Source: Collimonas fungivorans Ter331 (GTDB taxonomy: Bacteria; Pseudomonadota; Gammaproteobacteria; Burkholderiales; Burkholderiaceae_D). Taken from it: a stretch of 64,000 nucleotides of DNA. The position numbers and the translations under genes were made by a program. Numbering within the stretch: position 1 is the stretch's first letter; every line of letters begins with the position of its first letter. The notes under the pieces are model-generated. The model did not search any database and was not told the DNA's origin. It worked only from the letters and a program-made list of their open reading frames with translations. The stretch spans positions 3,244,542-3,308,541 of the forward strand of contig NC_015856.1 in assembly GCF_000221045.1 (NCBI RefSeq), given 5' to 3'. Below are positions 48,795 to 50,883 of the stretch, one piece after another.

Positions 48795-50045
48795 TTATTC
48801 GCTCAGGGTCTCGGCCAGGTTCTTGTTGTTGAAACCGAAACTGGCGATCACCGCCAGGCTTGCCAGCGCCAGTCCGCCGCCCAGCCACAGGGTAGACGAG
48901 ATGCCGAGCGAATCGACCACCACGCCGCCGGTGGACGAACCTACCGCAATCGCTACCTGCACAATGCTGACGAATAACGCGGAACCGGCTTCCGGCAAGT
49001 CAGGGGACGACAATTGCAGCCAGATGCTGGCGCACAACGGGATGGCGCCGAACGCCACGCCCCAGGCCAGCACCATCGTCACCACGCCCGCTTGCGATGC
49101 ATGCAGCAGCGGCAACGCCAGCAAAGCCACCATCAGGATCGCCACCATGGAAAACAGCGAAAGCTGCAGGTTGCGGGAGACGGTGGTCGAGATCGCAAAA
49201 TTCGAAACGAAGCCGACGAAACCGAAGCCCAGCAGTACCGAAGTAATCGCCGGCAGGCTGAATCCTGCGCTTTGCACCAGGAACGGCGTGACATAGGTGT
49301 AGGCGGAAAAGTGCGCGCCAAACACCAGCGCCACCATCAGCAAGCTTTTGCGGATAGTCGCCCGGCCCAGCAATGCGCCCAGGTCGCTGAAGCGAATCGC
49401 CGCTTTCGACGGCAGCGAAGGCAGCAGCAGCGCTTGCGCAGCCAGCGCCACGGCGGCCAGCACGCCGGTGGCGATGAACGATGCGCGCCAGGAAGCCAGG
49501 GTGCTGATGAAGGTGCCGAGCGGCACCCCGATCACCGTGGCGAAGGTGACGCCGGTCAGTATCATGGCGGTCGCCTTGGCGGCGTGCTCTTCCCGCACCA
49601 GCCGCGCCGAAGTCGCCAGCGCCAGCGTCCAGAATCCGCCCAGCGCCGCGCCCAGCAGGGCCCGTCCTAGCAGCATCGTGCCAAAGCCGGGAGCCATCGC
49701 CGATATCAGGTTGGACGCCAGCAGCAGCACCGACAGCATCAGCAAGATCAGGCGGCGGTTAATGCGCCCTGCTCCCAGCATCAGCCCCGGCGCCGAGATG
49801 GCCGCGATCACTCCCGGCGTGGTCACCATCAAACCGGCGGTGCCGGGCGAAACGCCAAGGTCGTGCGCGATTTGCGGCAGCAGCCCGACCGGCAGGAATT
49901 CCGTGGTGACAAACGCAAACGCGCCTATCGCCACCGCCACCACCGACAGCCACGAACGCAAAGGCGATGCCGTGCTGCTGACATGCACGGGCAGGTCGAG
50001 AAGGCTGTCGTTTTGCGCGCTGATCGCCGCCATATTTTTTTCCAT
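48795..50045 (-). CDS. MFS exporter, DHA1 family (Bcr/CmlA/arabinose-efflux-like)
   Basis: 416 residues from ATG 50045, which has AGGAG six bases upstream. Twelve membrane segments. VAIGAFAFVTTEFLPVGLLP and LMLGAGRINRRLILLMLSVL follow the DHA1 layout (motif A variant). PLGTFISTLASWRASFIATG is the antiporter motif C region. Likely exports sugars, drugs or metabolites. Two CTGTA-N11-TACAG sites in the 257 bp upstream link it to the Rrf2 regulator at 50303. Confidence 0.9.
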   Translation of the reverse strand: MEKNMAAISAQNDSLLDLPVHVSSTASPLRSWLSVVAVAIGAFAFVTTEFLPVGLLPQIAHDLGVSPGTAGLMVTTPGVIAAISAPGLMLGAGRINRRLILLMLSVLLLASNLISAMAPGFGTMLLGRALLGAALGGFWTLALATSARLVREEHAAKATAMILTGVTFATVIGVPLGTFISTLASWRASFIATGVLAAVALAAQALLLPSLPSKAAIRFSDLGALLGRATIRKSLLMVALVFGAHFSAYTYVTPFLVQSAGFSLPAITSVLLGFGFVGFVSNFAISTTVSRNLQLSLFSMVAILMVALLALPLLHASQAGVVTMVLAWGVAFGAIPLCASIWLQLSSPDLPEAGSALFVSIVQVAIAVGSSTGGVVVDSLGISSTLWLGGGLALASLAVIASFGFNNKNLAETLSE

Positions 50046-50169
50046 GTGAAACTCCTGTTCTTTACGCCTGATAGAAATAACCAAAATCGATAAAAATGCA
50101 GCCGGCACTGACCAGCCGTGCCGGCTGCCTTGCATCTGGTTTGCGGCAACCCGCCTCGCCGCGACTAAA

Positions 50170-50190
50170 CTGTAATATTTTTTAATACAG
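50170..50190. promoter_or_regulatory. CTGTA-N11-TACAG operator site 1 (MFS promoter)
   Basis: CTGTA and TACAG, 11 bases apart, extended by matching AAA/TTT on the outside (AAACTGTA...TACAGTTT). 125 bases upstream of the MFS ATG. Confidence 0.7.
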
Positions 50191-50262
50191 TTTAGAATGT
50201 AAAAATAGGATCAAAATCGATCCCTTACTCAATCAACCATACCAATTAACTGCGCCAATTAA

Positions 50263-50283
50263 CTGTATATGATTTTTATACAG
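50263..50283. promoter_or_regulatory. CTGTA-N11-TACAG operator site 2 (MFS promoter)
   Basis: The strongest copy: perfect 13-base arms AATTAACTGTATA / TATACAGTTAATT (50257-50289) around a 7-base core. Lies between the Rrf2 stop and site 1. Confidence 0.75.
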
Positions 50284-50302
50284 TTAATTATAAAAAAAAC
50301 CA

Positions 50303-50737
50303 CTATGCCTCAGTCTTGTCGGCGATCTTGTTGACCAGCTCGGACAATTTTCTTTCCCGCAGGATCTCCAGCAAAGCGCCCTCGACTTCCGACACCACCG
50401 GATCCAGCACCATATCCATGCCGCAGCTGACCGGACAACAGAGGTCTTTCGAACGCGTATTGTGCTTCAGCACCGGCCCTTCCTCCACCGCCTGGTAGAT
50501 CTCCGCCAGGTTGATGTCCGACGCCGGCCGCGCCAGCTGCACGCCGCCGCCCTTGCCTTCCTTGGTCAACACCAGCTTGGCCTTGCTCAGCTTGCGCAGC
50601 AGTTCACGCACAAAAACGGGATTGGTATTGACGCTCGTGGCAATGGCGGTGGAAGGCAAAAACACTTCCCCGCCCCTGGTCGCGTACTCGACGCTGACTA
50701 AAATGTGTGCCGCCACGGCAAATCGACTCGACTTCAT
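50303..50737 (-). CDS. Rrf2-family transcriptional regulator
   Basis: 144 residues with the Rrf2 winged helix (SSRFAVAAHILVSVEYATRG, VRELLRKLSKAKLVLTKEGK then GGGVQLARP). Three Cys cluster near residues 97-103 (LCCPVSCGM), unlike the C-x7-C-x5-C iron-sulfur pattern of IscR/NsrR; this is the YwnA-like subgroup, so a redox- or thiol-sensing role without a cluster is likely. The same 21-bp site occurs overlapping its own start region and twice before the MFS exporter, which makes it the probable repressor of both. Confidence 0.9.
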   Translation of the reverse strand: MKSSRFAVAAHILVSVEYATRGGEVFLPSTAIATSVNTNPVFVRELLRKLSKAKLVLTKEGKGGGVQLARPASDINLAEIYQAVEEGPVLKHNTRSKDLCCPVSCGMDMVLDPVVSEVEGALLEILRERKLSELVNKIADKTEA

Positions 50738-50738
50738 A

Positions 50739-50759
50739 CTGTAATCTTATTCGATACAG
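50739..50759. promoter_or_regulatory. CTGTA-N11-TACAG operator site 3 (rrf2 promoter)
   Basis: Same arms and spacer as sites 1 and 2, immediately upstream of the rrf2 ATG (50737), suggesting negative autoregulation. Confidence 0.7.
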
Positions 50760-50883
50760 ATACCCTCAGTCAAGTAACTTTGTAGCATAAGCTTATTCGG
50801 ATGCGTATTGCCCATCGAGGCCACAGCGCCGACGTCTTCCGCGACGGTGCGCGGACAGGACGCCGGCTGCCGAGATGGGCGAT

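What the first reader, a model, noticed from the sequence alone, without database searches (positions are those of the whole stretch)
50170..50759. Three CTGTA-N11-TACAG sites linking an Rrf2 regulator to an MFS exporter
The same 21-bp dyad appears twice in the promoter of the MFS exporter and once immediately before the rrf2 start. Site 2 extends to 13-base perfect arms. The regulator is a YwnA-like Rrf2 protein with a CCPVSC cluster rather than the iron-sulfur pattern, so a thiol-redox or electrophile-responsive export system is plausible and apparently undescribed.
Basis: partly seen in the sequence, partly recalled or inferred. Interest (0 to 1): 0.74.

Follow-up and report, generated by a model that had tools for sequence, protein, structure and literature searches.

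The report
Cysteine-type Rrf2 repressor guarding an exporter
In soil bacteria of the genus Collimonas (and their Herbaspirillum relatives) a small repressor, most likely a cysteine-based stress sensor, appears to switch off both its own gene and a neighbouring export pump by sitting on near-identical DNA palindromes, a new exporter-linked variant of a known regulator type.

Summary
Three exact CTGTA-N11-TACAG dyads lie at 50170-50190, 50263-50283 and 50739-50759 and are the only exact ones in the 5.19-Mb genome. In 18 distinct Collimonas/Herbaspirillum loci one dyad sits exactly 22 bp before the rrf2 ATG (18 of 18) and one precedes the MFS gene (18 of 18); the middle one is Collimonas-only (10 of 12; Herbaspirillum 0 of 6). 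In five Herbaspirillum loci both arms of the MFS-proximal dyad change together. The regulator is YwnA-like; its invariant Cys101 lies at the predicted start of helix 5, like SifR's sensing cysteine. The dyads resemble the published SifR/HypR operator TGTAA-N9-TTACA, also found before 33 of 50 other homologues (reversed control 4 of 50). Best reading: an autorepressor of the non-Fe-S thiol type controlling an MFS exporter. Binding, effector and export substrate are untested.

The parts
50303..50737 (-). rrf2: YwnA/SifR-type Rrf2 transcriptional regulator, 144 aa, cysteines only at C100, C101, C105 (CCPVSC)
   Evidence: PF02082 E 1.7e-26; PDB 1ylf 5.5e-14 and YwnA 1xd7 4.6e-13; Cys positions; model helix 102-127
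48795..50045 (-). MFS exporter-like gene, 416 aa, start preceded by CAGGAGTTTCACATG
   Evidence: PF07690 E 1.3e-31; PDB 'Sugar efflux transporter' 6kkk E 1.6e-42; below the curated cut-off of all 13 NCBIfam models listed
50739..50759 (.). site 3: operator abutting the rrf2 start codon; covers the predicted -10 (TAAGAT 50749-50744)
   Evidence: at -22 in 18 of 18 distinct loci; promoter-like match
50170..50190 (.). site 1: operator overlapping the predicted MFS promoter (arms 50165-50177/50183-50195)
   Evidence: conserved 18 of 18, with both arms changed to CTGTC/GACAG in five Herbaspirillum loci
50263..50283 (.). site 2: accessory operator 19 nt after the rrf2 stop (13-nt perfect arms 50257-50269/50277-50289)
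   Evidence: Collimonas only, 10 of 12
50744..50773 (-). predicted rrf2 promoter TTGACT-18-TAAGAT; +1 would be the A of the ATG (leaderless mRNA, inference)
   Evidence: similar geometry in 18 distinct loci
50174..50203 (-). predicted MFS promoter TTTACA-18-AATATT
   Evidence: 9 of 12 consensus matches; 3 promoter-like sites in the region against 0.7 +/- 1.0 in shuffles
50207..50224 (-). terminator-like hairpin with T tail between site 2 and site 1, probable rrf2 terminator
   Evidence: 2 such sites found against 1.2 +/- 1.2 in shuffles, so no excess by itself; conserved by eye in the Collimonas alignment

Best explanation
The rrf2 gene encodes a dimeric winged-helix repressor of the non-Fe-S, YwnA/SifR-like branch of the Rrf2 family. 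In its reduced form it binds the CTGTA-N11-TACAG dyads. At site 3 it covers the -10 element and start of its own gene (autorepression). At site 1 it covers the promoter of the MFS exporter gene; site 2 is a Collimonas-specific extra operator. An electrophile or thiol oxidant (quinone, hypohalous acid or organosulfur type) modifies Cys101 at the start of the dimerisation helix, with neighbouring Cys100 and Cys105 able to form a disulfide. The protein then leaves the DNA, and the exporter and the repressor are both made. Shown here: gene content, dyads, their conservation, joint arm changes, family placement, the invariant cysteine. Inferred: binding, repression, thiol sensing, export substrate, leaderless mRNA.
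For: Dyads exact and locus-restricted. rrf2-MFS pair in all 21 Collimonas/Herbaspirillum loci fetched, window included (18 distinct). Site 3 and site 1 in 18 of 18, site 3 at a fixed -22. Both arms change together (CTGTC/GACAG) in five Herbaspirillum loci, as a dimer site would. Match to the SifR/HypR operator; sites 1 and 3 match it at 9 of 10 positions. The same operator type precedes the start of 33 of 50 other homologues, reversed control 4 of 50. A profile of the group scores YwnA 136.4 and BC1842 129.3 bits, then 67.7 (3k69), 63.3 (RsrR), 43.6 and less for IscR types. C101 invariant in 14 of 14 and 18 of 18 aligned rows (overlapping sets) and just before helix 102-127 in the model, as SifR C102.
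Against: No binding or expression data. Against the canonical TGTAA-N9-TTACA pattern only 10 of 18 Collimonas/Herbaspirillum upstream regions reach shuffle p of 0.05 or less; L033-L037 show no such dyad near the start (0 of 5). Site 2 is lost in L011 and L029 and absent from Herbaspirillum. In site 3 the right arm varies alone. CCPVSC lacks the HxxPNPxC context given for SifR cluster 6, so the effector may differ. The NCBIfam superfamily model TIGR00738 is not reached (64.2 bits, cut-off 73.3). The fold search does not separate YwnA (rank 13) from the Fe-S protein RsrR (ranks 2-9, 11, 12). Model confidence is low just before the cysteines (mean pLDDT 59 for residues 91-100).
Confidence: 0.72

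Rival explanations
1. Same repressor and operators, but the effector is not an electrophile: the CC-x3-C cysteines (perhaps with invariant His11) bind a soft metal or metalloid ion or an Fe-S cluster, and the pump exports something related.
For: C100, C101 and C105 conserved in 18 of 18 distinct loci; C100 is in none of the 10 other rows; H11 invariant in the aligned rows; in RsrR a histidine (H12) is a cluster ligand.
Against: Spacing fits none of the Fe-S patterns listed in PMC9218516; the profile places the protein with YwnA, not with RsrR or IscR; C105 is not special to the pair of genera: it also occurs in L034 and in L056, L057 and L059.
Confidence: 0.15
2. Same repressor, but it responds to the substrate of the exporter as an ordinary non-covalent ligand, without cysteine chemistry.
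For: The target looks like an exporter rather than a redox enzyme; repressor-exporter pairs commonly sense the exported compound (general knowledge).
Against: Invariant Cys101; SifR and HypR respond through thiols and ywnA/ywnB are induced by allicin.
Confidence: 0.15
3. The dyads belong to another transcription factor and lie next to rrf2 by chance.
For: No binding data; another conserved element, ATAAGCWTAT, suggests that a second factor may act at the rrf2 promoter.
Against: The same dyad type abuts or precedes starts of distant rrf2 homologues in other phyla; the only exact sites in the genome are here; published operator of the same branch.
Confidence: 0.04
4. The palindromes are RNA hairpins (terminators or attenuators), not DNA operators.
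For: Long A+T-rich arms at sites 1 and 2. RNA folding of the sites was not computed.
Against: The same letters recur at three places and across species, which a hairpin would not need; site 3 lies upstream of the predicted transcription start; a separate terminator-like hairpin lies between sites 2 and 1.
Confidence: 0.03

Closest known systems
SifR of Streptococcus pneumoniae (PMC9218516; abstract and sections 4, 6, 10, 11 read)
   Same: Rrf2 repressor without Fe-S ligand pattern; cysteine just before helix 5; operator TGTA-N11-TACA (published as TGTAA-N9-TTACA).
   Different: The SifR regulon named in the abstract is catechol/quinone and iron genes, no MFS exporter among them; SifR's cluster has one conserved cysteine in HxxPNPxC, here CCPVSC with three; here the operator abuts the repressor's own ATG.
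YwnA (B. subtilis, PDB 1xd7) with YwnB; BC1842 (PDB 1ylf)
   Same: Best sequence matches among solved structures; 1ylf is also the first fold match, 1xd7 rank 13; ywnA lies in a ywnAB operon.
   Different: Partner there is an oxidoreductase, YwnB; relatives seen here also have an NAD(P)-binding oxidoreductase next to rrf2 in 11 of 50 loci (I call it YwnB-like from recall, the call shows PF13460 for the L018 copy). The Collimonas partner is a transporter.
HypR of Staphylococcus aureus (PMC10715087 passages; operator from PMC9218516)
   Same: Rrf2 repressor, related operator, thiol-based derepression of the adjacent gene.
   Different: HypR uses Cys33-Cys99' between subunits; here residue 33 is Ala (by number, HypR sequence not aligned) and all cysteines are at 100, 101, 105. 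NCBIfam HypR model: 40.4 bits, cut-off 180.
IscR, NsrR, RsrR, RirA (Fe-S Rrf2 regulators)
   Same: Same family domain and fold.
   Different: Far below the NCBIfam cut-offs of IscR, NsrR and RirA; ligand spacing not met.
Sugar efflux / purine ribonucleoside / Cmx-type MFS exporters (PRK03545, PRK10213, NF033135; the name SotB is recalled)
   Same: MFS_1; closest solved structure is a sugar efflux transporter, 6kkk.
   Different: Below every curated NCBIfam cut-off listed, so the substrate cannot be named.

Membership tests
Rrf2 family (PF02082) | Pfam match above the gathering score | tested here: met
   93.4 bits, cut-off 30; fold match to Rrf2 structures
Rrf2 family (TIGR00738 superfamily model) | NCBIfam curated score | tested here: not met
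   64.2 bits, cut-off 73.3; I keep the family label on the Pfam score and the fold
YwnA/SifR-like (non-Fe-S) Rrf2 regulators | closest to YwnA among known structures, by sequence | tested here: met
   profile 136.4 bits YwnA, 129.3 bits BC1842, next 67.7; the fold search alone does not separate YwnA from RsrR
YwnA/SifR-like (non-Fe-S) Rrf2 regulators | conserved cysteine at the start of helix 5 | tested here: met
   C101 invariant 14 of 14 and 18 of 18 rows; helix 102-127 in the model
YwnA/SifR-like (non-Fe-S) Rrf2 regulators | operator TGTAA-N9-TTACA | tested here: met
   sequence only: sites 1 and 3 match 9 of 10; site 2 is 8 of 10 by eye; binding itself untested
SifR SSN cluster 6 | HxxPNPxC motif and a single conserved cysteine | tested here: not met
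   HNTRSKDLCCPVSC, three conserved cysteines; so not filed as SifR itself
SifR SSN cluster 6 | quinone adduct at the cysteine releases DNA | not testable with these tools
   needs protein
HypR (NF041852) | curated model score and Cys33/Cys99 pair | tested here: not met
   40.4 bits against 180; only C100, C101, C105
IscR/NsrR/RirA Fe-S regulators | cluster ligand spacing and curated score | tested here: not met
   IscR 34.6 bits against 207.55, NsrR 26.7 against 182, RirA 43 against 193; only C100, C101, C105
PRK03545 sugar transporter | curated score | tested here: not met
   221.2 bits against 401

The most novel reading that the evidence does not exclude
A distinct subclass of Rrf2 sensor, seen among the genomes searched only in Collimonas and Herbaspirillum, in which a three-cysteine CC-x3-C site (with invariant His11) replaces the single-cysteine switch and gates export instead of detoxification. 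Its effector (a metal or metalloid ion, or a two-step disulfide) would be new for the non-Fe-S Rrf2 branch.
Probability: 0.2. Interest if true: 0.62.

Novelty: new variant of a known kind. Interest (0 to 1): 0.42.

Why it matters
It would extend thiol-based Rrf2 regulation in Gram-negative soil bacteria from enzymatic detoxification to efflux, and offers a compact system (all three exact sites of the genome at one locus) in which sensor, operators and output can be tested in one construct. The recurrent placement of the operator at the start of the regulator gene in several phyla is a usable mark for finding such sensors and their targets.

Tried and rejected
Fe-S regulator: thought unlikely on curated scores and cysteine spacing, kept as a rival. 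Wider regulon: searched the genome with CTGTA-N11-TACAG (0 and 1 mismatch), ACTGT-N13-ACAGT (1 mismatch) and TGTAA-N9-TTACA (1 mismatch). I read the surroundings of only 11 of these other sites: 7 lie inside crude ORF calls; the others are beside a TetR-like gene (by eye, L098), in L126, at another Rrf2 gene (L127) and at an ORF edge (L050). Listings were cut, so weaker distant targets are not excluded. Looping by sites 1 and 2: spacing varies between species, no fixed helical phase, not pursued. MFS leader hairpin as attenuator: in the alignment it appears only in the window and its nearest relatives, so not general. Export substrate: no NCBIfam transporter model passed. More distant MFS homologues (42-45% identity, nine genomes) were fetched but their neighbourhoods were not examined. 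Tree: the careful search did not finish; only the quick tree is used, with 11 of the 18 distinct MFS-partnered proteins, and the place of YwnA inside the group is unresolved there.

Literature: searches 'Rrf2 MFS efflux redox', 'YwnA Rrf2', 'Rrf2 quinone cysteine repressor', 'Rrf2 Collimonas' (no paper), 'HypR Rrf2 operator MerA', 'Rrf2 family, MFS transporter', 'Rrf2 SifR', 'Rrf2 leaderless'. Beyond PMC9218516 I saw passages of PMC8119775, PMC6943732, PMC9239112, PMC10715087 and PMC13404960; all other papers were seen as listing only. In what I saw none describes an Rrf2-controlled MFS exporter. The library holds open-licence papers only.

Full report
Observation. They are the only exact CTGTA-N11-TACAG matches in the 5,186,898-bp genome. 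The number itself is no excess: the reversed control pattern has 9 exact matches, and at up to one mismatch there are 67 real and 268 control sites; 64 one-mismatch sites over 30 variants would predict about two exact ones (my arithmetic). Three inside 590 bp around one regulator, and their conservation, are the signal. Site 2 has 13-nt perfect arms and site 1 13-nt arms at 92%.

Genes. The regulator (50303-50737, minus strand) is an Rrf2 protein (PF02082, 93.4 bits), although it stays under the NCBIfam superfamily cut-off (64.2 against 73.3 bits). The genome has three Rrf2 proteins over the Pfam cut-off. The next gene (48795-50045, minus strand) is an MFS transporter (PF07690) nearest to the solved 'Sugar efflux transporter' 6kkk (E 1.6e-42). 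None of the 13 NCBIfam models listed for it reaches its cut-off, so the substrate is unknown.

Conservation. One genome-contig scan gave 22 loci; the 14 at 81-99% identity are all Collimonas or Herbaspirillum, which is also why I call the window Collimonas. A search of 145 genomes of the family matched 10: the window's own, six of its genus and three distant ones; one small genome of the genus (G083, 1.7 Mb) had neither the Rrf2 nor the MFS match. The MFS gene follows in all 21 Collimonas/Herbaspirillum loci including the window. In these 18, CTGT-N13-ACAG lies at -22 from the rrf2 ATG in 18 and in front of the MFS gene in 18. Site 2 is present in 10 of 12 Collimonas (not L011, L029) and 0 of 6 Herbaspirillum. 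In five Herbaspirillum loci both arms of site 1 read CTGTC/GACAG, a matched change. In site 3 the right arm varies alone (TACAG or GACAG), so the fifth base is not strict.

Promoter geometry. In the window the predicted rrf2 promoter is TTGACT-18-TAAGAT. In the 18 loci the hexamer ending 6 nt before the ATG matches TATAAT at 4 to 6 positions, with a -35-like hexamer 16-18 bp upstream matching at 3 to 5. The dyad covers the -10 and the bases up to the ATG. If transcription starts at the usual distance, the first base is the A of the ATG and the mRNA is leaderless; this is inference. The MFS gene in contrast has ACAGGAGTTT before its ATG in 12 of 15 Collimonas rows (alignment, duplicates included). 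A terminator-like hairpin between sites 2 and 1 (such hairpins are not in excess over shuffles there) is conserved by eye in the Collimonas alignment, so the MFS gene probably has its own promoter (TTTACA-18-AATATT), which site 1 covers.

Family. A profile from 14 homologues scores PDB YwnA 136.4 bits and BC1842 129.3, then 67.7 for 3k69, 63.3 for RsrR and 31.2 for E. coli IscR. The AlphaFold model (mean pLDDT 82.8) has helix 102-127, putting C101, invariant in 14 of 14 and 18 of 18 rows, at its start; the stretch just before is weakly modelled. In the PDB fold search 1ylf is first, RsrR entries follow, and YwnA is rank 13, so the fold alone does not decide the branch. PMC9218516 (abstract and sections 4, 6, 10, 11) describes SifR, a monothiol quinone sensor related to YwnA, with its cysteine at the N-cap of helix 5 and operator TGTAA-N9-TTACA, the same half-site spacing as here. 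The window protein has C100, C101 and C105 only, and all 18 distinct loci keep CCxVSC. C100 is in none of the 10 other rows; C105 is also in L034, L056, L057 and L059. The HxxPNPxC motif of SifR's cluster is not met, so I file it beside SifR, not as SifR.

Wider group. With the 14-row profile, 8 of 369 class-level and 71 of 398 phylum-level genomes match at E <= 1e-18, own genome included; loci were fetched for the best matches only. Among 50 fetched homologues outside the Collimonas/Herbaspirillum rrf2-MFS loci (L018-L025, L033-L037, L056-L092; they include paralogues in the window's genus and some close relatives of each other), a TGTAA-N9-TTACA match of at least 8 of 10 lies within 80 bp of the assumed start in 33, against 4 for the reversed pattern. 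By my count of that listing 21 of the 50 end between -4 and +1 of the start codon. None of the five loci L033-L037 has it. For the 18 rrf2-MFS loci the same test gives 17 with at least 8 of 10, reversed control 2, and shuffle p of 0.05 or less in only 10. Start codons were chosen by script.

Partners. Of those 50 loci, 11 carry a homologue of the L018 NAD(P)-binding gene downstream of rrf2 and none a homologue of this MFS (blastp E <= 1e-6, flanks of at most 3 kb). I call that gene YwnB-like from recall; the calls show PF13460 for L018. Pfam on ten genes near rrf2 gave, besides L018, F420_oxidored in L036, L068 and L070, Pyr_redox_2 in L079 and L080, other domains in L069 (SnoaL), L024 (Lactamase_B_2) and L072 (methyltransferase), and an NAD(P)-binding gene in L021 that is not adjacent to rrf2. 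In a quick tree of 46 proteins the 11 MFS-partnered rows form one group (SH-aLRT 99) on a long stem (1.98) inside a weakly supported group with YwnA and BC1842 (careful search unfinished). The picture is a partner exchange, oxidoreductase to exporter, in one lineage. One genome (G002) has an MFS orthologue (78% identity, with an in-frame stop), no Rrf2 match at E <= 1e-15 and no CTGT-N13-ACAG dyad in the 4 kb read, of which about 730 bp lie upstream of the gene: in line with joint loss, n = 1.

Mechanism. Repression by promoter occlusion at sites 3 and 1, relieved by modification of Cys101, is the best-supported model. SifR loses DNA on quinone addition at C102; HypR is inactivated by disulfide formation; ywnA and ywnB rise with allicin. 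None of this has been measured for the Collimonas protein, as far as my searches show.

Verdict. A sound observation and a good lead: a new exporter-linked variant of a published sensor class, with open questions about its three cysteines and its substrate.

Noticed in passing
window 50787-50796 (minus strand, -59 to -50 from the rrf2 ATG): An element ATAAGCWTAT (a perfect palindrome in the window) is kept at 8 of 10 or better in 18 of 18 distinct loci at -57 to -59; its position shifts with the -35/-10 spacer, so it stays in register with the -35 element: possible activator site for rrf2. No shuffle control was run.
   Followed up: partly
window 50095-50131: G+C-rich hairpin with 14-nt arms followed by a T-rich tail in the MFS leader, seen in the alignment only in the window and its nearest relatives: possible attenuator or stray terminator.
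   Followed up: partly
G000:C1:2530226-2530651 (L063, L127): Another Rrf2 paralogue in the same genome has TGTACTATCATTAGTTACA overlapping its start codon; the two operators differ in the bases flanking TGTA/TACA (C..G against A..T), a possible specificity rule.
   Followed up: no
L058, L063, L072, L073, L074, L079, L080, L082, L083, L085, L086, L089, L092: In these 13 more distant Rrf2 homologues an operator-like dyad overlaps the assumed start codon by one base, suggesting that leaderless autoregulated mRNAs may be common in this branch.
   Followed up: partly
L129 (G002 contig 70): MFS orthologue with an in-frame stop in a genome without an Rrf2 match at E <= 1e-15 and with no dyad in the 4 kb read.
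   Followed up: partly
L116-L124: More distant MFS homologues (42-45% identity) in nine genomes of two other genera of the family, none of which had an Rrf2 match at E <= 1e-15; their neighbours were not read.
   Followed up: no
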